27,189 nucleotides of DNA from a virus. Below are positions 1,874 through 21,695 of the stretch, in pieces. The notes under the pieces were generated by a model. The model made no database searches. It was not told the DNA's origin and saw only the letters and a list, made by a program, of their open reading frames with translations. The translations under genes were made by a program, and so were the position numbers. The DNA is taken from the IMG/VR virus record IMGVR_UViG_3300023295_000009, positions 1 through 27,189 of that record. One strand, given 5' to 3'. Position 1 is the first letter of the stretch. Each line of letters opens with the position of its first letter.

Positions 1874-3925
1874 ATGAGAAAAACAGTTCAAATACCTATC
1901 AATGGTTATTTACTAGAAAATACCGATGATAAAGCAAATAAAGGTGCTTATGTATCATCTGCATTTGATATTATTATAGATATTTTAAAGGTAAATACAA
2001 ATAGACCAGCTTTGCAATGTAAATATTATGATACCTCCTCTGGAATTATCAATGGATTATATTATTGGGAAGCTAAAGATATAGTAATTGGTGTTATAAA
2101 TGGAGTTGCATATCAATTTGATAAAATTAATGATGAGGAATATGAAATAACAGATATATCAGGTGGTATAACATTAAATGTTACTAATAAAGTTTATTTT
2201 GCAAGTAATTCTACATATGTAAACATGGCAAATGGTGGAAGGATGTTAAACTGGGCCGGTTCAACTGGTGTTCCTAGTGCATATATAACCGATGCTGATG
2301 CTCCAACTACAGTGGATGTACTTGCATATATAGATAATTATATATTGGCACTGGATAAAACAAATAACAAATGGTACTTTTCAGATGCTACTGCCGGTAT
2401 AAATTCACCGATCACATGGTCTGGAGATTATTATTCATTTGAAGGTAAACCCGATAATGTAACATCTATAATAGTTTCAAACTCTATGATATATGGATTC
2501 TGTACTTCCAGTGTAGAACTTTGGTATAATGATGCCACACCATTTTCAAGAATATCTGGGGGAGTTTTAAATACTGGATGTACTTATACAGATACTATCC
2601 AGGAATTAGATGGGATTATTTATTATCTTGGTTCTGATAAACATGTATATGCCATTGCTAACACTAATTTCAAATCATTATCACTATTAATAGATAATGA
2701 ATTATCATCATTGGATTTTACAGATTCATATGCAGATATAATTAATATTAATGGATTAAAGTTTTATATACTCACCATTCCAAATGAAGACACCACATAT
2801 GTATATGCTATAAATGATAATGGATGGTTAAAATGGTCCAATTATTCTAATGGTGTAAGAACTGAGTTTGGTGGTAGATATTTCATTTCGGAACCTGATA
2901 TCTTGGGCGTAAGTAATTCATCCATTGCTTTATATAAACTAAATCCAGATGGTGAAGTAGATGACAATATTGAAATAGAAACACCAACTGTACAATATTA
3001 TGATGAAGATGATATGGAAGCTGGTATTGAACCATGGGATGGTATTGATTTATCTATGGTTAATGGAAAGAATCATACATATCAAGGTAATGCAATATTC
3101 AGGGCAGATCAATCAGAGACTACATTTGATGTAAGTTATAATGATTTTGGTTCTGATAATTTAGTAACAGAAAGAACTTCAACAGATGCTAGTTCCAATT
3201 TCAATAAAAGATATGAAGTTGAATGCGTTAGTGGCGGTACTGGTACAGATGTTGGTGAGATTAAGTTTAATATTAATGGTGGTGCTATTAATAAACTATT
3301 TGAAGTATGGTATGAAAAGACTAGCCCGCCTGCCGAGAATTATTTTCCATATTATTATTATGGTACACCATCTGCATATAATTTTAAATTAGAATTATAT
3401 AACCCATATACTGGTCCAATCGGTTCTACATGTACATTAACTAGAGCTGGTGGAATCGTATCATCAGCAGGTGGGTTCATAACGGCAAATATTAAATCAC
3501 ATGAGTTTGATGTTGCAGGTGTTGATACTATACTCATAACAGTAACTGCTGAATCACAAAAGAATGCTTTTAGAATTAATAGATTGAGTTCATATCCAAT
3601 AGTATTTAATAAGGTAACATCTTGGTTAGATCATGGAACGCCAAATTATAAAGTATCAAGGTTATTAAAAATTAAACTGGATAGAGATTATGTAAATTAT
3701 ATAAACCCAGGAGCTGATTTTGAATTAAGATTCCGTAATAATGGTTCCGATTGGTCTAACTGGATATCAATGGAGATACAACAGGATTCAGATGGATTCT
3801 ATTCATATTTAAGAAACTTGGGTAGATATAGTTCCAGACAATATGAGATCAGATGTTTATATCCAATTAAGTTTTCCATTGATAAAATATATGAAACAAT
3901 AGATATAACTAACAGACAATTATAA
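1874..3925 (+). CDS. P22 gp10-like head-closure / tail hub protein
   Basis: A protein of 683 residues with GGAG before the ATG. Residues roughly 185-265 match the central block of P22 packaged-DNA stabilisation protein gp10: a FEGKPDN segment, then a SSVELWYN strand, PFSRISGG, a GC step, and a YYLGSDKHVYAI strand. In P22 this protein plugs the portal after packaging and carries the tail needle and spikes. The P22 protein is about 470 residues, so this one carries an extra C-terminal region of about 200 residues, beta-rich, with a late YEIRCLYP block close to the end. That extension may be a second platform for receptor-binding proteins. The stop codon overlaps the first copy of the 23-bp late element. 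The family call is by recalled motif pattern. Confidence 0.75.
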   Translation: MRKTVQIPINGYLLENTDDKANKGAYVSSAFDIIIDILKVNTNRPALQCKYYDTSSGIINGLYYWEAKDIVIGVINGVAYQFDKINDEEYEITDISGGITLNVTNKVYFASNSTYVNMANGGRMLNWAGSTGVPSAYITDADAPTTVDVLAYIDNYILALDKTNNKWYFSDATAGINSPITWSGDYYSFEGKPDNVTSIIVSNSMIYGFCTSSVELWYNDATPFSRISGGVLNTGCTYTDTIQELDGIIYYLGSDKHVYAIANTNFKSLSLLIDNELSSLDFTDSYADIININGLKFYILTIPNEDTTYVYAINDNGWLKWSNYSNGVRTEFGGRYFISEPDILGVSNSSIALYKLNPDGEVDDNIEIETPTVQYYDEDDMEAGIEPWDGIDLSMVNGKNHTYQGNAIFRADQSETTFDVSYNDFGSDNLVTERTSTDASSNFNKRYEVECVSGGTGTDVGEIKFNINGGAINKLFEVWYEKTSPPAENYFPYYYYGTPSAYNFKLELYNPYTGPIGSTCTLTRAGGIVSSAGGFITANIKSHEFDVAGVDTILITVTAESQKNAFRINRLSSYPIVFNKVTSWLDHGTPNYKVSRLLKIKLDRDYVNYINPGADFELRFRNNGSDWSNWISMEIQQDSDGFYSYLRNLGRYSSRQYEIRCLYPIKFSIDKIYETIDITNRQL

Positions 3926-3946
3926 AATAACTTGGAACAAAATATG
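3924..3946 (+). promoter_or_regulatory. 23-bp late element, copy 1 (putative phage promoter)
   Basis: AAAA followed by TAACTTGGAACAAAATATG. The identical 23 bases occur at 11615, 19217 and 24208, always on the plus strand and ahead of virion or lysis genes. This copy overlaps the TAA stop of the hub gene and lies 104 bases upstream of the next start codon. Its last base is also the first base of a long RNA stem (3946-4029), which suggests that transcription starts at or very near that G. No consistent -10 box follows at host sigma70 spacing. Promoter function is inferred from repetition and position. Confidence 0.7.
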
Positions 3947-4029
3947 ACGTGGATGCCATATATATAAATATATGTTACAATTAAGTAATAGGATACTACA
4001 TCCAAATAGGTAATATGGTATTTCACGTC
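3946..4029 (+). promoter_or_regulatory. Structured RNA leader (16-bp closing stem with two inner hairpins)
   Basis: Bases 3946-3961 (GACGTGGATGCCATAT) pair with 4013-4029 (ATATGGTATTTCACGTC), giving 16 pairs with one bulged U and two G-U pairs. Inside are two short hairpins: 3971-3989 (TTAC/GTAA core with an AATTAA loop) and 3991-4003 (GGAT/ATCC with a five-base loop). The stem begins exactly at the last base of the 23-bp element. The gene after it begins 20 bases past the closing strand, with AGAGG outside the fold. It could be a mRNA-stabilising 5' structure, a regulatory leader or a small RNA. It is not a tRNA: there is no GTTCRA T-loop. Confidence 0.6.
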
Positions 4030-4049
4030 TATTTAAAAGAGGTAAAAAT

Positions 4050-4259
4050 ATGATATTAAATATACCAGATGAGTTTAAGAAGAATAATCAGGTAAATATC
4101 TTTATGAATAATCTAATTAATTTATTTTATTCAGATACAAAGTATTATGGTAATCCTTCAGAAGATGGGTCGTATAAAGTAAATGTAGATGGTGCAGATT
4201 TAAAGACTTATAGAAAAGAGTCTGGGGTCTGGGTTTTAAAAGATACTATTTCCGGATAA
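4050..4259 (+). CDS. Small virion-region protein, function unknown
   Basis: A protein of 69 residues with AGAGG before the ATG. It is acidic to neutral with no cysteines: an amphipathic N-terminal helix (residues 5-30) and then a strand-rich, Gly/Tyr/Asp-containing second half ending in a WVLKDTISG segment. It is the first gene after the 23-bp element and the structured leader, and stops 14 bases before the next gene, so it heads an operon with the ejection-type proteins. The short size and position fit a small tail or neck accessory protein or a chaperone. No family is recognised. Confidence 0.6.
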   Translation: MILNIPDEFKKNNQVNIFMNNLINLFYSDTKYYGNPSEDGSYKVNVDGADLKTYRKESGVWVLKDTISG

Positions 4260-4273
4260 TAAGGAGGATTAAT

Positions 4274-5506
4274 ATGAGTTTAGCATGGGTACCAACAGCA
4301 ATAAGTGCAATAGGTTCTATATTTGGTAGTAAAAAGGCAGATAGAGCAGCCGAAAATGCAGCAGCAGCTAATGCAGCAGCTCAACAGCAAGCATATAATG
4401 ATGCGAAGGCATACATGAATCAGGGAGTTAATGCTGTAAATATTGCAAGAGATTATAGATTAAATAATTCCAGTGATATTTTTAATTACCAAAGAAATTT
4501 AGAATCACAAAGGAATCAAGCATATAATGATGCATATGCTGATCCAGCAAATCAAATAACAGATCAATTTGAAGGTTATTATAAAGATGCTCAAGGTCAA
4601 TTAACTGATCAATATGGAAATGCTTTAAATACACAAGATAGTTCTTTACAAAATGCTTTATCATCATTAAGGAATAATTTTGATACGGGTATAAATGATA
4701 ATACTGGTAATGCAGTTAATCCATATAGAGATGCCATACAGAATAGAATAGGTAATTTATCAAATCCAGTATTGAATTATGATAATGATGCAGCATATGC
4801 CGAAAGAGAAAGACAAGCACAAGAACAGATGAATAGACAGTTACTTGCAAGGGGTGAGTTTAATTCCAGTGAAGGATTGAATCAGAATAGAGAGATATCA
4901 ACCGCATTAGCACTTCAGAATGAACAAGATGATTATAATAGAGCTTTACAACTTGCTGAATTAGAAAGGGCTAGGAGTGGCGAATTAAGCGGTTTAGTTG
5001 GTTCTGGATTAAACACCGAACAAGTTGGTAACAATTTAAATCAGAATACATTGGATAATTATAATAGATTAGGAACTCAAGAAGCAGACTTATATATGAA
5101 TCAAGGTAGAAATGTATCTGGTATTTATACTGGTTTAGGTGATAAAACTGCCGGATCTACACAATCTATGGGTCAAGATATTACTAATTTAAACACTAAT
5201 AATTTAAATAGCCTAATTAATAATGATCAAAATTATTATAAAAATATATCAAATATTTATGGTAATCAACTTACTAATAATCAGGATGTTCAAAATGATT
5301 GGTCTAATCAATTATTAACAACTGCAATAAGTCAACCTGTAACAGGTGCCGGTCAGAAGATGGGTAATACCATATATGATAATGCTGGAAATACTGCAGG
5401 TGCTAATTCATATAACAATACCAATATGTTCAGTAATCTTGGTACTATATTTGGTGCTGCTAATAATGAATGGAATAAAAATCAAAATCAATATCTGGGT
5501 GCATAA
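4274..5506 (+). CDS. Internal virion / DNA-ejection protein (Ala-Asn-Gln-rich)
   Basis: A protein of 410 residues with AAGGAGG before the ATG. The N-terminus (SAIGSIFGSKKADRAAENA) is of the type seen on short-tailed phage internal or DNA-transfer proteins: a short Gly-containing hydrophobic segment followed by a long Ala/Gln-rich helix. The rest is low in hydrophobic residues and very rich in Asn, Gln, Asp and Tyr, with predicted helical stretches around 150-240 and Gly/Asn-rich linkers towards the end. In P22 and T7-like phages such proteins sit inside the capsid or portal and are ejected ahead of the DNA to build a channel through the host envelope. Two similar large proteins follow directly, as in other ejection gene sets. 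Confidence 0.6.
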   Translation: MSLAWVPTAISAIGSIFGSKKADRAAENAAAANAAAQQQAYNDAKAYMNQGVNAVNIARDYRLNNSSDIFNYQRNLESQRNQAYNDAYADPANQITDQFEGYYKDAQGQLTDQYGNALNTQDSSLQNALSSLRNNFDTGINDNTGNAVNPYRDAIQNRIGNLSNPVLNYDNDAAYAERERQAQEQMNRQLLARGEFNSSEGLNQNREISTALALQNEQDDYNRALQLAELERARSGELSGLVGSGLNTEQVGNNLNQNTLDNYNRLGTQEADLYMNQGRNVSGIYTGLGDKTAGSTQSMGQDITNLNTNNLNSLINNDQNYYKNISNIYGNQLTNNQDVQNDWSNQLLTTAISQPVTGAGQKMGNTIYDNAGNTAGANSYNNTNMFSNLGTIFGAANNEWNKNQNQYLGA

Positions 5507-5520
5507 GGGAGGATTTAAAC

Positions 5521-7125
5521 ATGGGTTGGAATAATTATTTTGATGCGCTCAGAGATGCTGGGATAAGACTATCACCACAGGCTATAAATGAAGCCATATA
5601 TAAAAACCAATTAGCTAAAGCAAACACTAGAAATGTTTCAGTATTGGAAGAAGAAGATAGGAATAGTTCTATATATAAAAGTCAACTTGCAAAGGCAAAC
5701 ACTAGAAACTTACCAACATTGGAAGAATTGAATAGATTAAAAGGTGAATCTAGTATTAGAAGAATGCCATCAGATGAAGCAGCTGTAATATCTGGTAACC
5801 AATTAAAGGATACTACCAATAGATATGAAATTGATAGAGCCCCAATGGATAATACTGATAAAATGTTGAAACTGGATAATAGTATTAAGAATGCTCCTGC
5901 ACAGTTTATATCAGATAATTCTAAATTGAGATCAGATGCATTAGTAAATGAAGGCAAAATAGCTAATAATCCATATCAACAGGCATATGATAAATCAAGA
6001 TTACAATCAGGTGCATTATCAAATGAAGGTAAAATAGCTAATAATCCATATCAACAGGCATATGATAGATCAAGATTACAATCAGACACATTATCAAATA
6101 ACTCTGATATAAGTACAATGAAAAATCCAAACTATCAGACGTATAAAGATAATAAATTATCTTTGGGTGTAGCAGAACAGGAAGAAAAAGAAAAGGTAAA
6201 CAAGATCACTGCATTAATGGACCCAATGGATGCAATGGCTTATAAAAGTATTATAAGTGGTAAAGGTGATACAGAATCTAATCTTTTATATTTGAATCAA
6301 TTAAGTGATAAATATCCAGATCTAACCAATGATATAATTAGTAATTTAAAAAATACATTTAACATACCAACTCCATTAGAGAATATTACCATTCAGGATA
6401 TTAGAAAAGCATTAGAGAAGAAGGATGTAAATGTTTCATCTTTGATATATATGGATAAAGATGGTAATGAAAGATATGGTACCAAGGATCCTAACACTGG
6501 ACAACCAATTGAAAAAGATACTGATGCAATCCGTAGACGTGCCGATAATAAAAATAATATAAAACCTAAAATATCAGAAAAAACATTTAAAAAACTAGAA
6601 GAATTAAAAACTGAGATAAATTATTATAAGAAAAAGATTAATGATGATACTGATAATTTTATAGATATTGATAAAAATATTAAAATGTATTTAGTTGCAA
6701 ATGGATATGATATAAAAAATAAGAAGTCTATTATAGAAGGATTGACCAAATATTATGATTCAGAATTGGCTGATAATGGAATCGTTATGTATAAAAAGGG
6801 AAGCCAAGGACCATCACAACCAAATAATATAAATGGGAATACACCTGGAATAGATGGTAAACCAGTTGGTGCTTTTGAGCCCGGACGTGGTAAAAATGTA
6901 AGACCACAATATGATCCACCAAAAGAAAGGGATTATTCTGTTGTTGAAGATCAGGTAATGATTAGATTAAATGAACCAGATAAAAAATTATTACAGAGAT
7001 TAAAAAGTACAATGGACGGTTTTAAGTTTAGGGAATTATTAGATAGGGCAGCAAAAGGTTTAATTGATAAAAAAGAAACTAAAAGTCTTTGGAATATTAT
7101 GAAAAAAGAAGATGGATGGATTTAA
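5521..7125 (+). CDS. Putative internal virion / ejection protein with internal repeats
   Basis: A protein of 534 residues starting 15 bases after the previous stop with GGGAGG before the ATG. It is hydrophilic and mostly helical, rich in Asn, Lys, Asp and Ser. The N-terminal 60 residues hold two copies of a Y-K-x-Q-L-A-K-A-N-T-R-N unit. Residues 132-206 hold about three copies of a 25-residue unit (SRLQSGALSNEGKIANNPYQ type), almost identical in DNA as well as protein. A helical segment follows (about 350-400), then a Pro/Gly/Asn-rich linker (about 430-480) and a helical, charged C-terminus. No catalytic motif is visible. The position between two ejection-type proteins suggests the same role. 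The repeats look recently amplified. Confidence 0.55.
   Translation: MGWNNYFDALRDAGIRLSPQAINEAIYKNQLAKANTRNVSVLEEEDRNSSIYKSQLAKANTRNLPTLEELNRLKGESSIRRMPSDEAAVISGNQLKDTTNRYEIDRAPMDNTDKMLKLDNSIKNAPAQFISDNSKLRSDALVNEGKIANNPYQQAYDKSRLQSGALSNEGKIANNPYQQAYDRSRLQSDTLSNNSDISTMKNPNYQTYKDNKLSLGVAEQEEKEKVNKITALMDPMDAMAYKSIISGKGDTESNLLYLNQLSDKYPDLTNDIISNLKNTFNIPTPLENITIQDIRKALEKKDVNVSSLIYMDKDGNERYGTKDPNTGQPIEKDTDAIRRRADNKNNIKPKISEKTFKKLEELKTEINYYKKKINDDTDNFIDIDKNIKMYLVANGYDIKNKKSIIEGLTKYYDSELADNGIVMYKKGSQGPSQPNNINGNTPGIDGKPVGAFEPGRGKNVRPQYDPPKERDYSVVEDQVMIRLNEPDKKLLQRLKSTMDGFKFRELLDRAAKGLIDKKETKSLWNIMKKEDGWI
5914..6138 (+). repeat. In-frame tandem repeat, 75-bp (25-residue) unit, about 3 copies
   Basis: Three consecutive 75-bp units inside the preceding gene encode D-x-S-x-L-x-S-x-x-L-x-N-E-G-K-I-A-N-N-P-Y-Q-Q-A-Y. 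Units one and two end in an almost identical DNA stretch (at about 5955-5990 and 6030-6065); the third has diverged and contains a small insertion. The reading frame is kept, so copy number could vary without breaking the protein. Confidence 0.75.
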
Positions 7126-7161
7126 CTTTATTACCAGATAGACCAAAATAGGAGTTGTAAT

Positions 7162-10100
7162 ATGAAAGATAACCTCTTTGACATTAATAGTCTTAGATTA
7201 GATGATGATTATATTATTGAACATAAATCCGATAATGAATCAGTTGATAATGGTTTTGATATGAATAGATTGAGTTTAGATGATGAGTACGTTACTGAAT
7301 ATAAATCTGATGACAATTCTAGATATCAAAATGATGAAAATAGATTAAAACCCAATTCAGATATTAAGTTTGATAATTTAATGACATTTATAAAAGACAA
7401 ATCAGAACATGAACAATATAGCATATTAAAACAAGTTGAGAAGTCTAATAAAGATGATATTGATTTCGTATCCAGAGTGAAAGATGTATCCGATAAATTA
7501 GAATCAGGATATCTAGATACTATAGGATCTGGTCTATTACAAGGTGGTAATAGAATTGTAAAAGGATTAAAAGGTTTATATAATGTAGCTGTTCCAGATT
7601 TTAAAGAATATGATACCAGAGAAGATGATGTAAATATTCAGAGAAATGCTCCTAATATTGAGGAAGGGTTTAATGCAAAAAGTATATTAAATACAACAGC
7701 ACAATCACTTCCTGCTTTAGGTCTTGGGATGATTACTGGTGGAGCTGCTTATGGTGCTTATGGTGGTGGTATAGCCACTGCTCTTGGTGCGGGAGTTCCT
7801 GGAGCATTACAGTATGGTGAAGCAAAAGAAGATGCTTATAACGATGGTGTTACAAATGATTTTACTGCGCATATATCTGGATTAGTACAGGCTGGATTAG
7901 AATCAGCTGGGTCATTAATTCCAATAGCCAGGATATTCAATAAATTACCAGTGAGTAAAAGTATTGGTAGAAGAATATTACAAGCAATGGCAGAAGGTAC
8001 GGTTGGTGAAGGTGTAGAGGAATATTTACAAGGTCTAGCAAAACCATTAATAGAAAATGGAAATATATCATCTGATGATTGGAAAAATGCATGGGAATCT
8101 GCAAAAATGGGTGCGGCATCTGGATTATTACTTGGTGGTACACTTGGTTCAGCTCAGAGATTTGATCCTAATATAGAAATTCAACGTGAAGATTTTGGTC
8201 CGGTTAATGTTAATGATATACGGATTAATGACATTCAAAATTATAATGATATACAACAAGTTCCTCCATCTACCGATAATATATCAAATGAAAAATTAAT
8301 AAACCAAGGAACCATATATGATGAAGATATTCAGAAATCAAATGAACAAAAGGATAGAATTAGGAATAAAATACCACAAGATAATTTAGATGTAACACAG
8401 GTTAATGATGATACAGATGTTGAAAGAATTAGTAACAGACAAAATCTATATGAATTATTTAATGATAGATATACTGATGAAGAACTATCTGATGCTGATA
8501 CATCTGATTTTAATACTCTTAGAGGTAATTTCCAGAAGAGTTTATATGATAATGGCATAACATCACCAATATCTGAAAATATTACTCCATTACGCCGTGA
8601 TGGTAATAAACAATTATCATTTGATTTCGCCGAGGATGAACCAGGTGGTGTTGATGTTGGTGAAGGAGTAACACTTGGTACTGAATCATATGTAGGTGAT
8701 GGTTCTGATGTTGAAGCTATGATACATGAAACAGTGCATACAATTTTAAATACTAATGAAGATACTAAGCTACTATCAAATGAAGAAAAGGAACAAATAG
8801 TTTTAGATTCAATTAACCATTTCTTCGTTAAAGAGGACCCATATATAAAGGATAAATTAGGCAAATTTAATGATATAATTGAAGATTTTACTAAAGGTAT
8901 TGTTAAACAGCATAAAGAAAAAATACCAACAACTCTATCCAAAGATTCTGGTAGATCTACTCACTCCGGTGGTTATAATCCAGGATTTTCCCCTCTTGTT
9001 AAATTATCACAGAATATATATAGAGATTCATCGAAGGCACTTAGTTTAATAAAGAAACTTATAGGTATGGGTAAGGATAGACAGGTAAAAAATAATATAT
9101 CTGATGAAAATATACAGTCCCAAATAGATGCTATGGATATTGTTGGTCTAGAAACTAGGATAAATCAACTTAGTAAATCAGAGGGTAGGGCAGAAGCAGC
9201 AATGAATAATTCAAGTTATTCAGATGCTCTAGCCGGGCTAAAAGATATGGGATTGAGTTATCACCAAATAGCAGAAATTTCTTTAGAGACTAGTAATATG
9301 ATTTTTGGTGAAAAGTTTTGGGCTGCATGGGATCTTGGTCAAAAAAAACAAGGAGAGGGTAATTATAAAATGTTGAACCCACGTTTAAAATATAAACCAG
9401 ATAATGTATCCAGGTCAGATTGGGATAGAGCTGTTGTAGATCTAATGTTATCTTTTAATTTTTTTTCAGCAGAAATTGGAACAAAATTAAGAAATAATAA
9501 TTTAATTGGTGAATATAATGGTGAAATCATTCTTCCATTTTTAATTGGTTTTGAAGGGGGTAATATCAATTCAACCGAAGATCTTATTAACTCAATTAAA
9601 AAAGAAAAAAATAATTTACCTGAAGGTGATATATTAGACCCATCTGTTTATATAATGAACGCATTGATATCAGTTGAAAAAGCAATAGGTAAAAATACAT
9701 TTTATACAGATTTTATAAACAGTATTGAAACTGCCAAAAATGTTGGTGTTGATGTATCCAATTTAATCAGGAGAGTTGCAAGTAAACCTAATAGTGGTAA
9801 TAGTATAACTATATATGACAGAGTAATTGATAAGAATGGAAAACCAACATCAGCCATTGAAGAGAAGATATATTGGATTTCAGAAGATGTTAAAGAATCA
9901 TTAGAAGGAATGCAAGTACTCAATGAAAATAAATTCATAAAGAGTAAAGAAGAGTTTGGTACTCTTATGAAACCTATATTATGGACATCACGCATGGTTA
10001 GAAGTTTAATTACATCTACTGGATCATTTGGTATTGGTAATGTTATCAAAGATATTCAGACATCATTATTTTCATCATCTGGAACTACTATGGGACAATA

Positions 10101-11562
10101 TGGTTCTGTTGATGGTTCATTACAAGCTAAAGAAATTGATAAAATATTAAATAATTCTGGTATAACTGGTAATAGAAGTATGGTATCAGATAAACAAGAT
10201 TATTATAAAACTCAGATGGAATTATCAAAAGATATAATATCAAAGGGTAATGTTATAATTAATAAAAAAGATTCAGCTGGATTCTTTAGTAACTTAAAAA
10301 AGAAATGGAATGATTCTATTGAGTATGGAGAAGTAATAGGTAGAACAAGGGAGTTTAAACGTAATCATCAATTTGCTATTGAAAAACTTGGATATACTGG
10401 TCAAAAGGCAATTGATTATGCTGTAAATAAGACGCAAGAGATACTAAACTTTGAAGCTGGTGGTGAAATTATAAGAACACTTGGATCGGTAATACCATTT
10501 TTAACATCTAATATCCAGGGATCAGGTCAGTTCTGGAGCCCTAAGAAGAATGCTATTAAAATGATTTGGGGTAAATATTCCGGTAAAGGAACTACATTAT
10601 CAACAGTTCAACAGGAAGAGGCCAGACAGAATGTTAAAAATACAGTAAAAGGTACTATATTACTTGGAATTACAACAGTAACACTAGACTTATTACGAAG
10701 GGCTCTTGGTGATGATGATGAATATTCGGATGATTTTTTAAATAAATATTGGGTATTACCATTTGGTATTTATATACCTAAAGGTTTTGATGAATCAATA
10801 ATATCTAATTTAATAAGAAATCTATATGATCTTACAAGGGGCGAGAACTCTGGATCTAGAACTATATCATCCATGGGTAAATCAGTTGGAGAAGCAGCCA
10901 GAGGAACTATCCCAGGCATTACTACCGGATATGATACATTAATGGATGTTAAAGGTATTTTACTTGATGGAGTAAAGAAGGATTTTAGATCTGGTCAATC
11001 GTATTCTATTAATAATAAATGGGATTCACCTGTATCAATTGCTACAAAAAGAGGTGATGCTGCACTTAGAAAAGTTTCAGGTGGATGGTATAATGTAGTC
11101 AAAAATATAGTAGATATTGGTGAACAGGTTTATGGATATGATATAAATAAAGGTTTAAAAGATTCCATTGGAGTTGATATTCCTATATTAAAAGGGCATC
11201 GTAATGATTTCCCAAAAGAAGGTCTAGAGCAGATCCTTAGAGATATAGGTGATACATTTAGGTTAAAATCAGTTAATTCTAGGTGGTCACTAAAAAAATA
11301 TTCAGATGCTAAAGATATTGTTAGTAATGAAATAATTGAGGATAGATTTATTAATAATTATAAGAAGTCATTCAATGCTAATATTAAAGCTGTTAATTCA
11401 GCTAAAAATAAATATTATGAAGAAAAAAATGCTAAAAATGCTTCAACATTATTGAAAAGGATAAAGAAGTTAGAGAAATCTGGTGCTAAATTGGTTACTA
11501 AGTATCATGAAAGAAAGGAAAATAATGATAGATTAGTAAATAAGAAGCGTAATAGCAAATAA
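7162..11562 (+). CDS. Polyvalent ejection protein with HExxH zincin motif and LPD38-like domain
   Basis: A protein of 1466 residues with GGAG before the ATG. Visible order: two related acidic motifs at the start (DINSLRLDDDYIIEHKSD and MNRLSLDDEYVTEYKSD); a Gly/Ala-rich hydrophobic stretch at about 175-220 (GMITGGAAYGAYGGG) suited to membrane insertion; a second Gly-rich hydrophobic region to about 330; an acidic linker; an HETVH zinc-metallopeptidase motif at residue 522; a long helical region; a block from about 930 to 1190 resembling large-polyvalent-protein domain LPD38 (FGIGNVIKD, then a tail ending SVIPFLTSNIQGSGQFW); and a very basic Lys/Asn-rich C-terminus. Such giant proteins are packaged in short-tailed phage capsids and injected with the DNA. 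It is followed by a strong terminator, so it ends a transcription unit. The domain names are from recalled patterns. Confidence 0.75.
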   Translation: MKDNLFDINSLRLDDDYIIEHKSDNESVDNGFDMNRLSLDDEYVTEYKSDDNSRYQNDENRLKPNSDIKFDNLMTFIKDKSEHEQYSILKQVEKSNKDDIDFVSRVKDVSDKLESGYLDTIGSGLLQGGNRIVKGLKGLYNVAVPDFKEYDTREDDVNIQRNAPNIEEGFNAKSILNTTAQSLPALGLGMITGGAAYGAYGGGIATALGAGVPGALQYGEAKEDAYNDGVTNDFTAHISGLVQAGLESAGSLIPIARIFNKLPVSKSIGRRILQAMAEGTVGEGVEEYLQGLAKPLIENGNISSDDWKNAWESAKMGAASGLLLGGTLGSAQRFDPNIEIQREDFGPVNVNDIRINDIQNYNDIQQVPPSTDNISNEKLINQGTIYDEDIQKSNEQKDRIRNKIPQDNLDVTQVNDDTDVERISNRQNLYELFNDRYTDEELSDADTSDFNTLRGNFQKSLYDNGITSPISENITPLRRDGNKQLSFDFAEDEPGGVDVGEGVTLGTESYVGDGSDVEAMIHETVHTILNTNEDTKLLSNEEKEQIVLDSINHFFVKEDPYIKDKLGKFNDIIEDFTKGIVKQHKEKIPTTLSKDSGRSTHSGGYNPGFSPLVKLSQNIYRDSSKALSLIKKLIGMGKDRQVKNNISDENIQSQIDAMDIVGLETRINQLSKSEGRAEAAMNNSSYSDALAGLKDMGLSYHQIAEISLETSNMIFGEKFWAAWDLGQKKQGEGNYKMLNPRLKYKPDNVSRSDWDRAVVDLMLSFNFFSAEIGTKLRNNNLIGEYNGEIILPFLIGFEGGNINSTEDLINSIKKEKNNLPEGDILDPSVYIMNALISVEKAIGKNTFYTDFINSIETAKNVGVDVSNLIRRVASKPNSGNSITIYDRVIDKNGKPTSAIEEKIYWISEDVKESLEGMQVLNENKFIKSKEEFGTLMKPILWTSRMVRSLITSTGSFGIGNVIKDIQTSLFSSSGTTMGQYGSVDGSLQAKEIDKILNNSGITGNRSMVSDKQDYYKTQMELSKDIISKGNVIINKKDSAGFFSNLKKKWNDSIEYGEVIGRTREFKRNHQFAIEKLGYTGQKAIDYAVNKTQEILNFEAGGEIIRTLGSVIPFLTSNIQGSGQFWSPKKNAIKMIWGKYSGKGTTLSTVQQEEARQNVKNTVKGTILLGITTVTLDLLRRALGDDDEYSDDFLNKYWVLPFGIYIPKGFDESIISNLIRNLYDLTRGENSGSRTISSMGKSVGEAARGTIPGITTGYDTLMDVKGILLDGVKKDFRSGQSYSINNKWDSPVSIATKRGDAALRKVSGGWYNVVKNIVDIGEQVYGYDINKGLKDSIGVDIPILKGHRNDFPKEGLEQILRDIGDTFRLKSVNSRWSLKKYSDAKDIVSNEIIEDRFINNYKKSFNANIKAVNSAKNKYYEEKNAKNASTLLKRIKKLEKSGAKLVTKYHERKENNDRLVNKKRNSK

Positions 11563-13480: not shown

Positions 13481-14224
13481 CTATTTCAAACCTTTTGCCA
13501 CGATCAAAGCCAATTTGATACAACCCATTTCCATTATAAGATCAGGTCTTGTTGCATGTTTACCTTTCAATGGCTTACCCTTCTTACCTAATACTGGAGT
13601 ATCTCTAGCCATTTTACCAAGATGTATATCTATATGATCAAACATTTCAGCATCAAACTCACCCCATACCAAACCATGACCAGACTGATCATCAATTGCG
13701 TATCCTCTGCATTTAATAATATCATTAATAATCATATTCAATAATTGTCTTCTTGGGTCTTGTTTGTATTTTTCAATTGCCTGTATTGTTAGAAACTTAA
13801 CCTTACACTTTAATTCTTCAATCTGTTCATCTTTATATTCTATTTCTTTAACATGCGTTTCATATTCATTAGCCCATGCTCGGGCTCTTTCAACTGGGTT
13901 TATAATTTGATATGATGGCAATAATTTAGATTCTAGTGATTTTATATAACCCAGGACCTTACGTCTAACAACCTTGGACTCTCTCATACCGACCAGCATC
14001 ATTTCATCTTTAGTAAGATTAACTACTTGTATATCTTTATTACCTCTGTTGTTTTTAACTGCAAAAGTTTTGCAGTTAGATATATCGAGCTCATCAATAA
14101 CTCTTTCCAAGAATTGGGCATTCCTAGTTTCATTTTCCCCAGCTTCAACTCTAAAACCATTAATCACTTGTAAAAATTCATAACTGTTAATTGCATCATT
14201 GTTCATTGTTGTAAGTTTATTCAT
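13481..14224 (-). CDS. Rha/antirepressor-like regulatory protein 1
   Basis: A protein of 247 residues starting at 14224 with AAAGGAG in front. The N-terminal 100 residues resemble the Rha-type phage regulatory domain: an INGFRV/FLERVIDEL segment, a VVNLTKDEMMLVGM core and a RKVLGYIKSLE helix. A central segment (LPSYQIINPVERARAWANEY and the coiled coil after it) is shared almost identically with the upstream paralogue at 14407. The C-terminal domain (about 150-247) differs and is not recognised; it includes a Gly/His/Trp-containing GHGLVWGEF and a basic loop. Such proteins control phage development, often by opposing a repressor. It is the last gene of the minus-strand operon, ending at the two-way terminator. 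Confidence 0.65.
   Translation of the reverse strand: MNKLTTMNNDAINSYEFLQVINGFRVEAGENETRNAQFLERVIDELDISNCKTFAVKNNRGNKDIQVVNLTKDEMMLVGMRESKVVRRKVLGYIKSLESKLLPSYQIINPVERARAWANEYETHVKEIEYKDEQIEELKCKVKFLTIQAIEKYKQDPRRQLLNMIINDIIKCRGYAIDDQSGHGLVWGEFDAEMFDHIDIHLGKMARDTPVLGKKGKPLKGKHATRPDLIMEMGCIKLALIVAKGLK
13838..13937 (-). repeat. 100-bp direct repeat, copy A (shared antirepressor cassette)
   Basis: These 100 bases match 14755-14854 with a single T/C difference near 13859. On the minus strand they encode the same SKLLPSYQIINPVERARAWA-type segment in both antirepressor-like genes, in the same frame. The flanking coding sequence on both sides is unrelated or much more diverged, so the block looks like a recombined or gene-converted module. 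Confidence 0.92.
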
Positions 14225-14406: not shown

Positions 14407-15156
14407 TTACAGTACGTCTACAATTCTACCATATATTTCTTTAGCATCTGTTTCAAATAATTTAACTGTGAATCTGAATAATAAATCAGTTAGGTTTAAT
14501 GTATTACACGCATACTGGAGTTTACTTGTTTTATATTTTTTAATAGTACCCTTATCAACTGCATTCTTATATCTTTTCCTGATATCAATATTATATTTAT
14601 TTCTAAACTCAATATATAATAATCTGAATCTATCTTGTTGTGGACTCTTACATTTTACTATTTCAGATATTCTTTTCTGTTTCATTTCCAGGTCAATGTC
14701 CTCGGTTAGTGCTATAATTGTGTCATCCTTATATTCAATCTCTTTATTCTTGTGTTCTATTTCTTTAACATGCGTCTCATATTCATTAGCCCATGCTCGG
14801 GCTCTTTCAACTGGGTTTATAATTTGATATGATGGCAATAATTTAGATTCTAGTTCAGATATATATTTAATAACAGCTTTTCTAACATGTTTACTTTCTC
14901 TTACAAGAACCTGTTTGGCTTGATCATGTGTAAGATTGTACATTGGCATTTTCTTATTCTGTGATGATGTATATGAGGAGACGGAAATATTTCCTTCACC
15001 TATTTCTTCATCAAATTCATCTCTAATAATTTTTAATAAATCATAATGCATTAAATCAGATTTACCTTCAATCTGTTCACGATACATATTAATAGTTCCG
15101 CATAGGTCTTTGCTTGTAATGGTTCCATCATTGGTCATTGTTGTAAGTTCTTTCAT
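14407..15156 (-). CDS. Antirepressor-like regulatory protein 2
   Basis: A protein of 249 residues if started at 15156, where AAAGGAGCATAAACCA precedes ATG exactly as in the downstream paralogue. An alternative in-frame ATG at 15249 overlaps the stop of the ribbon-helix-helix gene (ATGA) and would add 31 residues. The N-terminal domain has a YNLTHDQAKQVLVRESKHVRKAVIKYI core of the Rha/antirepressor kind (written here in part: NLTHDQAK, RESKHVRK). The shared central cassette and a coiled coil follow. The C-terminal part, with a RFRLLYIEFRNKYNIDI segment, recalls ORF6C/KilA-C-type DNA-binding ends of phage antirepressors. Same operon as the ribbon-helix-helix gene. A role in early or lysogeny-type regulation is likely, but no repressor or integrase is visible in the window. 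Confidence 0.65.
   Translation of the reverse strand: MKELTTMTNDGTITSKDLCGTINMYREQIEGKSDLMHYDLLKIIRDEFDEEIGEGNISVSSYTSSQNKKMPMYNLTHDQAKQVLVRESKHVRKAVIKYISELESKLLPSYQIINPVERARAWANEYETHVKEIEHKNKEIEYKDDTIIALTEDIDLEMKQKRISEIVKCKSPQQDRFRLLYIEFRNKYNIDIRKRYKNAVDKGTIKKYKTSKLQYACNTLNLTDLLFRFTVKLFETDAKEIYGRIVDVL
14755..14854 (-). repeat. 100-bp direct repeat, copy B (shared antirepressor cassette)
   Basis: Second copy of the block at 13838-13937, 99 of 100 bases identical. The start regions of the two genes (14205-14240 and 15138-15173) are also close copies, including the ribosome site and the LTTM coding segment, while the domains in between differ. Confidence 0.92.
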
Positions 15157-15245
15157 TGGTTTATGCTCCTTTGATTTTTCTTTGTTATTTAAATTGAATC
15201 TAACTAGTGTACCATGATACTCTGGATTTAAATCTGAAAATGCCA

Positions 15246-15386
15246 TCATTTACCATCCTCATTCATCAAAACCCTTATAGCTCTACGTACTATACTTGTA
15301 ATAGAAACACTGTCATCTGCTGCCTTTTTCTCTAACCATGCACGTTCATCATCTGAAAATCTAATTCCTGACATTTTTTTTGTCAT
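15246..15386 (-). CDS. Ribbon-helix-helix (CopG/Arc-type) regulator
   Basis: A protein of 46 residues from ATG at 15386, chosen because TTAGGAG lies upstream at good spacing; the longer ORF from 15467 would read through a hairpin and overlap the preceding small gene. A basic N-terminus (MTKKMSGIRFSDDERAW) forms the DNA-contacting strand and first helix, and SITSIVRRAIRVLM is the second helix, matching the CopG/Arc/MetJ fold. Such dimers bind short palindromes, often in their own control regions. A perfect 10-bp inverted repeat lies 26 bases upstream of the start. Its stop overlaps a possible start of antirepressor-like gene 2, so the genes are coupled. Confidence 0.75.
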   Translation of the reverse strand: MTKKMSGIRFSDDERAWLEKKAADDSVSITSIVRRAIRVLMNEDGK

Positions 15387-20121: not shown

Positions 20122-20161
20122 ATGATTATTAAAAAAGAATCTAATATTTTGGGGGGTTTTG

Positions 20162-21695
20162 GTGGATAAATCAATATTAAAACATATAACAACATTTGAG
20201 GGATACGTAACTAATGTTATGGATATAACCGTATCAGAACAACAGATGACATTTATAAAACATATAGACATGTTAATATCATCTAAGATAAAGAAGAATA
20301 TACTAAAAGTCCCATTAACTGATATAGAAAAAGAATATGCATCAAAGTTGGGCATGTCTGTCAAGTCGGGCAGAGGTTGCGGGTAAAGATTTCATCATAG
20401 CAGTTTATATATTATGGTTTGTTTTGGTATTCCCAAGTACATCAGTATGTACAGCGCCAACAGGAACGCAGTTGAGTACCATTCTTTGGTCTGAAGTTAA
20501 AAAATTAATATCAAAGATAAAATATGATTGCATTAAATCATTATATGTAGTTACTAATGATAAGGTAAAATGTTCAGGTAATGGATATGAATCATTTGTT
20601 ATAGCTAGAGCTTCTGGTAATAAAAATGCATCAGCATTATCAGGTTATCACAATGATTACATGACACTGATAGCCGATGAGGCAACTGGGATATCTGATG
20701 AAGTATTTGAACCTCTAGAAATGACGATGACAGGTAAAATGAACATATTACTATTAATATTCAACCCAGTGGTATTATCTGGATACGCATATGATTCACA
20801 GGAACATCCAGTATTAAGTAAACAGTTCATAAAATTACATTGGCCATCAACTGAATCAAATATAGTATCAAAAGAGAGTATAGAAAGAGCCGAAGAAAGA
20901 TATGGTATAAATTCTAATTACTATAGAACATCTATAGCAGCAAAATGGCCAAAAGAGTCAACTGATTCACTTATACCGATACATATGGCTAGATGGTGTA
21001 TTAATAGACAATATGATGAAGAAACTGCAATAGTACCAAATAAAGATGAACCAATTGTTATAGGGGTAGATCCATCAAGATCAGGTGCTAATGGATGCGA
21101 TACAATTTGTACGGTAAGGCAAGGTAGTTATATATATGAGTTTTATAAACCAGAGAATCAAGTAGATTCAGTTAAAATGGCAGATGAAATAATAGATGTA
21201 TTATTTTCTAGGTATCCAAACTTTACATATTGCTTTGTTGAAACAAACGGACTTGGGGGAGTTTTCTATGATATAATTAAAAAATATGATAAAGATAGAA
21301 TAATACCAGTTAATGTTGCAGATAAAAATGTTGATGAAGAGTTTTTAAATATGAGAGCCCAATTATGGTTTAGATTAAGAGAAGCTATAATAAGTGGTTT
21401 TCTTGGTATCAATCCAGAAATTGAAAGAAATGAAACTGAAATATTTATAAGTCAAATAACAGATATAAAACAAGATAAAGTAAGTGTTCAGAACTCTGGA
21501 AAGTTTAAGGTTAAAATAGAATCAAAGAAAGATATGGCTTCAAGAGGAATAAGTTCCCCAGATTATGGTGATGCTACTATTTTGAGTTTCTATTACACGA
21601 AGGAACAATTGGCGCAAAGGTTGAGTATAGGTAAGTATAAACCAGTAAGTGATGCATATTCAAATGAAGATGACATACCAAGCTGGATGGTATAG
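20162..21695 (+). CDS. terL: Terminase large subunit, split by a +1 frameshift in Walker A
   Basis: Two overlapping frames together give one protein of about 510 residues. The first starts at GTG 20162 (GGGGGG five bases upstream; a TTG at 20159 is also possible) and ends at TAA 20384 after MSVKSGRGCG. The second frame is open from 20337 and continues from AAA 20385 with KDFIIAVYILWF. Joining them by skipping the T at 20384 restores the ATPase Walker A GRGCGKD. Then follow a TAPTGTQLS motif, Walker B with catalytic Glu (LIADEATG), and the RNase H-type nuclease with Asp in GVDPSRSG, Glu in VETNGLG and Asp in SPDYGDA. The motor drives DNA into the head and cuts it. Because all downstream motifs are intact, the break is either a programmed shift or a sequence error rather than an old pseudogene. 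Confidence 0.85.
20372..20386 (+). other. Candidate programmed +1 frameshift site in terL
   Basis: The sequence is AGAGG TTGC GGG TAA A. A P-site GGG codon sits before a UAA stop, and moving one base forward reads GGT (still Gly with a wobble partner) and then AAA. A Shine-Dalgarno-like AGAGG lies four bases upstream of GGG; in the E. coli prfB +1 site an AGGGGG lies three bases upstream of CUU UGA. The similarity suggests recoding. A one-base insertion error or a real mutation gives the same picture. Confidence 0.55.

What the first reader, a model, noticed from the sequence alone, without database searches (positions are those of the whole stretch)
7162..11562. Giant ejection protein carrying an HExxH peptidase motif
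Residue 522 starts HETVH in a context (AMIHETVHTIL) like zincin metallopeptidases, placed between a membrane-suited Gly/Ala region and an LPD38-like block. An injected peptidase could cut peptidoglycan-linked or envelope proteins, or host defence proteins, at the start of infection. The two short repeats at the extreme N-terminus (RLDDDY.. and SLDDEY..) look like a packaging or docking tag.
Basis: partly seen in the sequence, partly recalled or inferred. Interest (0 to 1): 0.52.

Follow-up and report, generated by a model that had tools for sequence, protein, structure and literature searches.

The report
Phage ejection protein with metalloprotease-like domain
A short-tailed phage carries a giant protein, probably injected into the bacterium with the DNA, that contains a divergent zinc-protease-like domain; this belongs to an already described class of multi-domain phage proteins, but its metal site looks altered and its activity is untested.

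Summary
In detail: the 1466-residue ORF 7162-11562 has exactly one HExxH (HETVH, residues 522-526; 0.7% of shuffles have one). No library names the protein. A profile from distant phage giants matches its C-terminal block clearly (20.8 bits; best of 500 shuffles 7.5) and puts HETVH in register with their zincin domain. In 48 of 48 such giants fetched by a DxExxxHExxH pattern, an EGxA[EQ][FY] helix follows. A relative's domain is modelled well and resembles M34-type zincins (lethal-factor/PPEP fold), as published for polyvalent phage proteins in 2017. The window protein keeps D516, E518, H522, E523, H526, but has DIIEDF at the third-ligand helix, and its own model is poor (pLDDT 52). So 'zincin homologue in a gp16-like ejection protein' is likely; 'active peptidase' is plausible but unproven. 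By analogy with T7 gp16 it would face the host cytoplasm, so cutting itself or a host protein is likelier than attacking peptidoglycan or envelope. The N-terminal repeat is real, and other giants have comparable ones. New member of a known kind.

The parts
7162..11562 (+). Giant gp16-like ejection (polyvalent-type) protein, 1466 aa
   Evidence: Open frame; RBS AGGAG 7150-7154; synteny after Hc3 and two internal-virion-type genes
7192..7239 (+). N-terminal short repeat, copy 1 (residues 11-26)
   Evidence: 0 of 300 shuffles as good; 35/48 bases shared with copy 2
7270..7317 (+). N-terminal short repeat, copy 2 (residues 37-52)
7699..8211 (+). Gly/Ala-rich region (residues about 180-350), possible counterpart of T7 gp16 TMH I
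   Evidence: Hydropathy maximum at residue 238; weak phmmer match of 239-344 to the pre-zincin part of L078
8599..8991 (+). Divergent zincin-like domain (residues about 480-610)
   Evidence: Collinear with zincin of phage giants; HExxH helix and following helix are the only confident part of the model, about 82-89
8725..8739 (+). HETVH metal-binding/catalytic motif (residues 522-526)
8782..8793 (+). Alternative third-ligand candidates E541/E542/E544 at the start of the next helix
   Evidence: Helix 540-555 in the model
8872..8895 (+). DIIEDFTK (residues 571-578), aligned to the EGFAEFVR third-ligand helix of relatives
   Evidence: only match of [DE]xxx[DE][FYW]x[RK] in the protein
8962..10887 (+). 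C-terminal block homologous to LPD38-bearing phage giants (residues about 601-1242)
   Evidence: ct.hmm 20.8 bits vs shuffle maximum 7.5; hhalign 97.2% and 95.6%
10474..10929 (+). LPD38-equivalent segment (residues 1105-1256), possible TMH II counterpart
   Evidence: In register in hhalign but not significant alone
4274..5506 (+). Probable first ejection protein
   Evidence: Position; Ala/Gln/Asn-rich start
5521..7125 (+). Probable second ejection protein
   Evidence: Position; internal 75-base repeats

Best explanation
The gene encodes the large, gp16-like ejection protein of a small P22-like podophage. It is a polyvalent-type protein with three parts: an N-terminal docking region with a duplicated short acidic motif and a Gly/Ala-rich membrane-interacting region; a divergent M34-like zincin domain (HETVH); and a helical C-terminal block related to LPD38-bearing giants. 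It is packaged in the head, ejected ahead of the DNA, and assembles at the inner membrane with the zincin facing the cytoplasm. There the zincin cuts specific peptide bonds, in the protein itself after delivery or in a host protein. Shown: the motif, the distant homology and the collinearity. Inferred: packaging, ejection, topology, zinc binding, cleavage and target.
For: P22-type portal and Hc3 genes in the same phage. C-terminal homology: ct.hmm, built without P0001, gives 20.8 bits; best of 500 shuffles 7.5, best of 274 background ORFs 0.4; hhalign covers residues 601-1213 or 670-1242; the other giants tested (ctwe, KPP25, Skul, ct1fd) do not match. HETVH lies 945 residues from the C-terminus; relatives 987-1149 (32 of 32 with a closed end). 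The best local alignment of residues 400-640 is SDVEAMIHETVHTI on the HExxH of relatives; D516, E518, H522, E523, H526 are invariant in 25 of 25 (the pattern that fetched the relatives required them). The relative L107 zincin models well and matches LF/PPEP-type zincins. The domain sits between the two hydropathy maxima, matching the T7 gp16 layout (PMC8954989 passages). The C-terminus is basic (NKKRNSK), as reported important for T7 gp16.
Against: EGxA[EQ][FY] is present in 48 of 48 giants but not here (DIIEDF). The zincin profile alone gives 3.4 bits, and at least 2 of 500 shuffles score higher. The model of the window domain is poor (mean pLDDT 52). Six of 14 other giants examined lack HExxH altogether, so the domain is dispensable. 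N4 vRNAP, which has such a domain, is packaged unprocessed (PMC5512222 passages). No close relative of this protein was found, so conservation within its own clade is untested. Relatives without HExxH end in acidic or neutral tails, so the basic tail is not a family rule.
Confidence: 0.5

Rival explanations
1. Degenerate zincin: the domain is inherited from a peptidase but now serves only as a structural or packaging module of the ejection protein.
For: Third-ligand motif changed relative to 48 of 48 relatives; HExxH absent from 6 of 14 giants; in N4 vRNAP the MPTase region is needed for encapsidation and the protein is not processed (PMC5512222 passages).
Against: HExxH with the preceding DxE is kept although the domain is only 11-17% identical overall, which drift would not favour (but the locus was picked for its HExxH); an acidic pair at the third-ligand place is kept (D571, D575).
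Confidence: 0.25
2. Self-processing during assembly: the zincin cuts the giant protein in the prohead before release, as proposed for P1 DdrB.
For: Proposed theme for polyvalent proteins (PMC5512222 passages).
Against: No second enzymatic domain to release was found in P0001; N4 precedent is unprocessed.
Confidence: 0.13
3. Envelope opener: the injected peptidase cuts peptidoglycan crosslinks or envelope proteins.
For: No transglycosylase domain detected in the giant, so some other wall-opening activity is conceivable.
Against: Fold of a relative resembles protein-cutting M34 zincins; in Skulduggery an SLT domain and an HExxH occur in the same giant, so HExxH does not simply replace the wall enzyme; topology by analogy is cytoplasmic; a separate M15 endolysin is encoded.
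Confidence: 0.05
4. HETVH is a chance motif and there is no zincin.
Against: It lies at the collinear position of the relatives' zincin, with the same DxE lead-in.
Confidence: 0.07

Closest known systems
Zincin-like MPTase + LPD38 polyvalent proteins of phages (Iyer et al. 2017, PMC5512222); here e.g. Thalassomonas BA3, Vibrio vB_ValP_FGH, IMG/VR contig G002
   Same: Collinear: HExxH with DxE lead-in, C-terminal block; a weakly similar Gly/Ala-rich region before it; place in the structural gene module
   Different: Much shorter N-terminal part without detectable methyltransferase/ART/ParB/RadC domains; EGxAE replaced by DIIED; no Pfam match
N4 virion RNA polymerase gp50, C1 domain with HExxH
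   Same: HExxH domain in a giant ejected protein, followed by a large helical C-terminal part (PMC12633501 passages)
   Different: No RNA polymerase detected here; not compared by sequence here
T7 gp16 / P22 gp16 ejection proteins
   Same: Third ejection gene, similar size to T7 gp16 (1318 aa), two hydropathy maxima, basic C-terminus
   Different: No detectable sequence similarity in library searches; no transglycosylase domain; HExxH added
M34 zincins (anthrax lethal factor catalytic domain, PPEP-1/Zmp1)
   Same: Fold of the relative L107 domain (Z 8.8 and 7.7)
   Different: Comparison made with the relative, not with the window protein; third-ligand glutamate not evident in the window protein. 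The name M34 is recalled, not from a call

Membership tests
Zincin-like MPTase of polyvalent proteins | HExxH in the first C-terminal core helix | tested here: met
   HETVH 522-526, helix 514-531 in the model
Zincin-like MPTase of polyvalent proteins | Zinc-binding glutamate in the second core helix | tested here: inconclusive
   Aligned position is D571; Glu alternatives E541/E542/E544/E574; 48 of 48 relatives have EGxA[EQ][FY]
Zincin-like MPTase of polyvalent proteins | Three-stranded sheet with flanking helices | tested here: inconclusive
   Seen in relative L107; window model pLDDT 52
Pfam MPTase-PolyVal PF18818 | Score over curated cut-off | tested here: not met
   No match at E 10; only 3 of 24 relatives match, weakly
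Pfam LPD38 PF18857 | Score over curated cut-off | tested here: not met
   G002 and four further relatives exceed the cut-off
LPD38-type phage giants (wider family) | Homologous C-terminal block | tested here: met
   20.8 bits vs 7.5 in 500 shuffles; hhalign 97.2%
Podophage ejection proteins (gp16-like) | Gene position in the ejection module | tested here: met
   After Hc3 and two probable internal-virion genes; same order in Pelagibacter phages L037, L038
Podophage ejection proteins (gp16-like) | Presence in virion and ejection into host | not testable with these tools
   needs virion proteomics
M34 peptidases | Fold and catalytic residues in the window protein | tested here: inconclusive
   The window model is too poor for a fold comparison; a relative's domain matches

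The most novel reading that the evidence does not exclude
The window protein represents a divergent clade of phage-injected zincins in which an aspartate-type second helix (DIIED) has replaced the otherwise invariant EGxAE-type helix: an active metalloprotease variant with altered metal coordination, in a minimal polyvalent ejection protein whose only enzyme is that protease.
Probability: 0.3. Interest if true: 0.5.

Novelty: new member of a known kind. Interest (0 to 1): 0.36.

Why it matters
Zincins are described as the most common domain of polyvalent proteins (PMC5512222 passages), and that paper leaves open whether they cut the carrier protein or the host. A minimal carrier with no other detected enzyme makes that easier to test: there is nothing obvious to release, so any activity would point to the host or to entry itself. 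The N-terminal repeats found in several such giants also suggest a packaging or docking signal that can be tested directly.

Tried and rejected
Library names: no Pfam or NCBIfam match and no PHROGs match better than E 0.15 for the giant; PDB sequence hits only at 0.016 to unrelated response regulators. tblastn in 50,697 phage records: none even at E 10. Close-relative scans of viral contigs with the giant and the metallophosphoesterase: none. The near relatives found through the capsid protein (L002-L007) are stretches that do not hold the giant.

HExxH in Skulduggery, MW202615 and KPP25 giants first looked like the same domain; the zincin profile does not support that, so they are not counted as homologues. 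For KPP25 only the part of the giant on one side of the record start was read. Itty13 gp01-gp03 as annotated (+ strand) look like antisense artefacts; its real giant was not examined.

E541-E544 as the third ligand (short spacing as in classic gluzincins, recalled) was considered; alignment favours D571, but neither is proven. The [DE]xxx[DE][FYW]x[RK] chance figure (0.25%) was computed after seeing the alignment. The LPD38 segment alone is not significant. The single genome-contig hit L110 is a chance frame. Foldseek on the relative's model gives no E below 0.001; the M34 match comes from the second-look aligner, supported by a weak profile match (E 0.02) and by Pfam ATLF at best 0.0046 in 4 of 24 members. 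The window model's structure hits are helical coincidences; no zincin is among its 50 listed rows.
Full report
The window (27,189 bases, about 30% G+C) is an IMG/VR record of a small P22-like podophage: P22-type portal (PF16510, E 1.6e-79), Hc3 head closure, capsid-, scaffold- and tail-type genes by position, M15 endolysin and metallophosphoesterase. Contig L004 links the window's right end to its left end through about 5.1 kb, so the genome is probably about 32 kb, circular or permuted. The giant ORF 7162-11562 follows Hc3 and two probable internal-virion genes, the place of T7 gp16; named Pelagibacter phages show the same order (tail tubular B, acetyltransferase, internal virion protein, hypothetical, giant).

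Observation. HETVH begins at residue 522 and is the only HExxH in 1466 residues; 0.7% of 2000 shuffles contain one. The N-terminal repeat is real. The Gly/Ala-rich stretch is there, though no 19-residue window reaches hydropathy 1.2.

Finding relatives. The giant has no match in Pfam or NCBIfam, a best PHROGs E of 0.15, and none by tblastn in 50,697 phage records. A portal-based pattern gave contig G002, whose 1904-aa giant has HExxH at 837 and LPD38 at 1601-1783. tblastn with it found 51 phage records; ten giants (G002 and nine of the named phages) were made into a C-terminal profile. P0001, which is not in that profile, scores 20.8 bits over 855-1210; the best of 500 shuffles scores 7.5 and the best of 274 other ORFs 0.4. 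hhalign extends the match to 601-1213 (97.2%) or 670-1242 (95.6%). Giants of KPP25, Skulduggery, MW202615 and MW202744 do not match.

The zincin. Of the 14 other giants read at that stage, 8 have exactly one HExxH and 6 have none; in the five of these that share the C-terminal block it lies 1000-1068 residues from the C-terminus (945 in P0001) with the lead-in D[VI]EVx. A scan of viral contigs for D[VI]E[AV][MLI]xHExxH gave 43 and 21 loci. Of these 64, 48 match the C-terminal profile; 48 of 48 have EGxA[EQ][FY] 41-63 residues (median 46) after the first histidine, and all 32 with a closed right end have the motif 987-1149 residues from the C-terminus. The other 16 were chance frames, truncated ORFs or other proteins. 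In alignment A3 (25 sequences, P0001 11-17% identical to the rest; 24 picked from the 48 plus neighbours for completeness and diversity) D516, E518, H522, E523 and H526 are invariant; the search pattern required them in the relatives, so the independent points are the collinear place and the register. At the EGxAE column P0001 has D571-I-I-E-D575-F, the only such acidic pair in the protein. The zincin profile alone scores P0001 at 3.4 bits; at least 2 of 500 shuffles score higher, though it aligns exactly at HETVH.

Structure. AlphaFold2 on a relative's domain (L107 with 23 others) gives a good core (pLDDT about 80-97): helix, three strands, HExxH helix, insert, EGFAEF helix. VIA-align ranks the anthrax lethal factor catalytic domain (Z 8.8, rmsd 8.0 over 141; 3.5 over 125 for 1pwp at Z 8.6) and PPEP-1 (Z 7.7, 3.3 over 119) first, with ArdC further down (4.7); Z near 8 is modest by that tool's own note, but the top rows are all zincins. 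This agrees with Iyer et al. 2017, who linked the HEXXH domain of N4 vRNAP to the lethal-factor fold and called zincin MPTases the most common polyvalent-protein domain (PMC5512222, passages). The window domain itself is modelled poorly (mean pLDDT 52); only the HExxH helix and the next helix (540-555) are confident, so the third ligand cannot be settled and the structure hits of that model mean nothing.

Mechanism. In T7 gp16 two putative membrane regions (243-410, 1119-1290) flank a cytoplasmic part (PMC8954989, passages). P0001's two hydropathy maxima lie at about 238 and 1165, with HETVH between them. By analogy the zincin would face the host cytoplasm. No other enzyme is detected in the protein, so 'releasing other domains' has little to act on; a specific cut in the protein itself after delivery or in a host protein is my best reading (0.5). 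A degenerate, structural zincin is the main rival (0.25), because of the changed third-ligand helix and because other giants lack the motif.

N-terminal repeats. In 30 giants examined, 11 (10 different proteins, since L100 and G002 are one contig) have a repeated 12-residue stretch in the first 130 residues that at most 3 of 300 shuffles reach, among them P0001, G002, HTVC204P, vB_ValP_FGH, L069 (ANPFDQFD twice) and L065. Some N-termini were guessed as the first Met. This fits a docking or packaging signal but does not prove one.

Literature. Searches. Passages read: PMC5512222, PMC12633501, PMC8954989; other papers were seen only in listings. Known kind, new divergent member.

Noticed in passing
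window 20159-20386 and 20337-21695: The terminase large subunit is split by a +1 frame change inside its Walker A motif (..KSGRGCG* / ..AGKDFIIA..). The DNA is identical in all three other contigs of this population that cover it (L002, L004, L005), while relative L007 has one intact frame (3141-4677): a programmed frameshift at a stop codon or a fixed lesion.
   Followed up: partly
window 5931-6099: The gene before the giant (5521-7125) contains near-identical tandem repeats of about 75 bases (91.5% self-match).
   Followed up: no
L036, L037, L038, L040, L045 giants: Pelagibacter (Lederberg, HTVC204P), Bacillus (Page, Pascal) and MW202898 giants share the C-terminal block but lack HExxH; the zincin profile matches only its post-zincin part there, so the peptidase domain is a removable module.
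   Followed up: partly
N-termini of G002, HTVC204P, L065, L069, L072, L074, L107, L108: Short, often acidic/aromatic motifs repeated two or three times at the extreme N-terminus of giant ejection proteins with otherwise different N-termini (L107 by eye only, 25 of 300 shuffles reach its score).
   Followed up: partly
window 13481-14224 and 14407-15249, minus strand: Two adjacent minus-strand genes share a stretch (LPSYQIINPVERARAWANEYETHVKEIE), looking like duplicated antirepressor-type genes.
   Followed up: no
L014:161-11419: Phage Itty13 gp01-gp03 as annotated look like antisense readings of its structural module.
   Followed up: no
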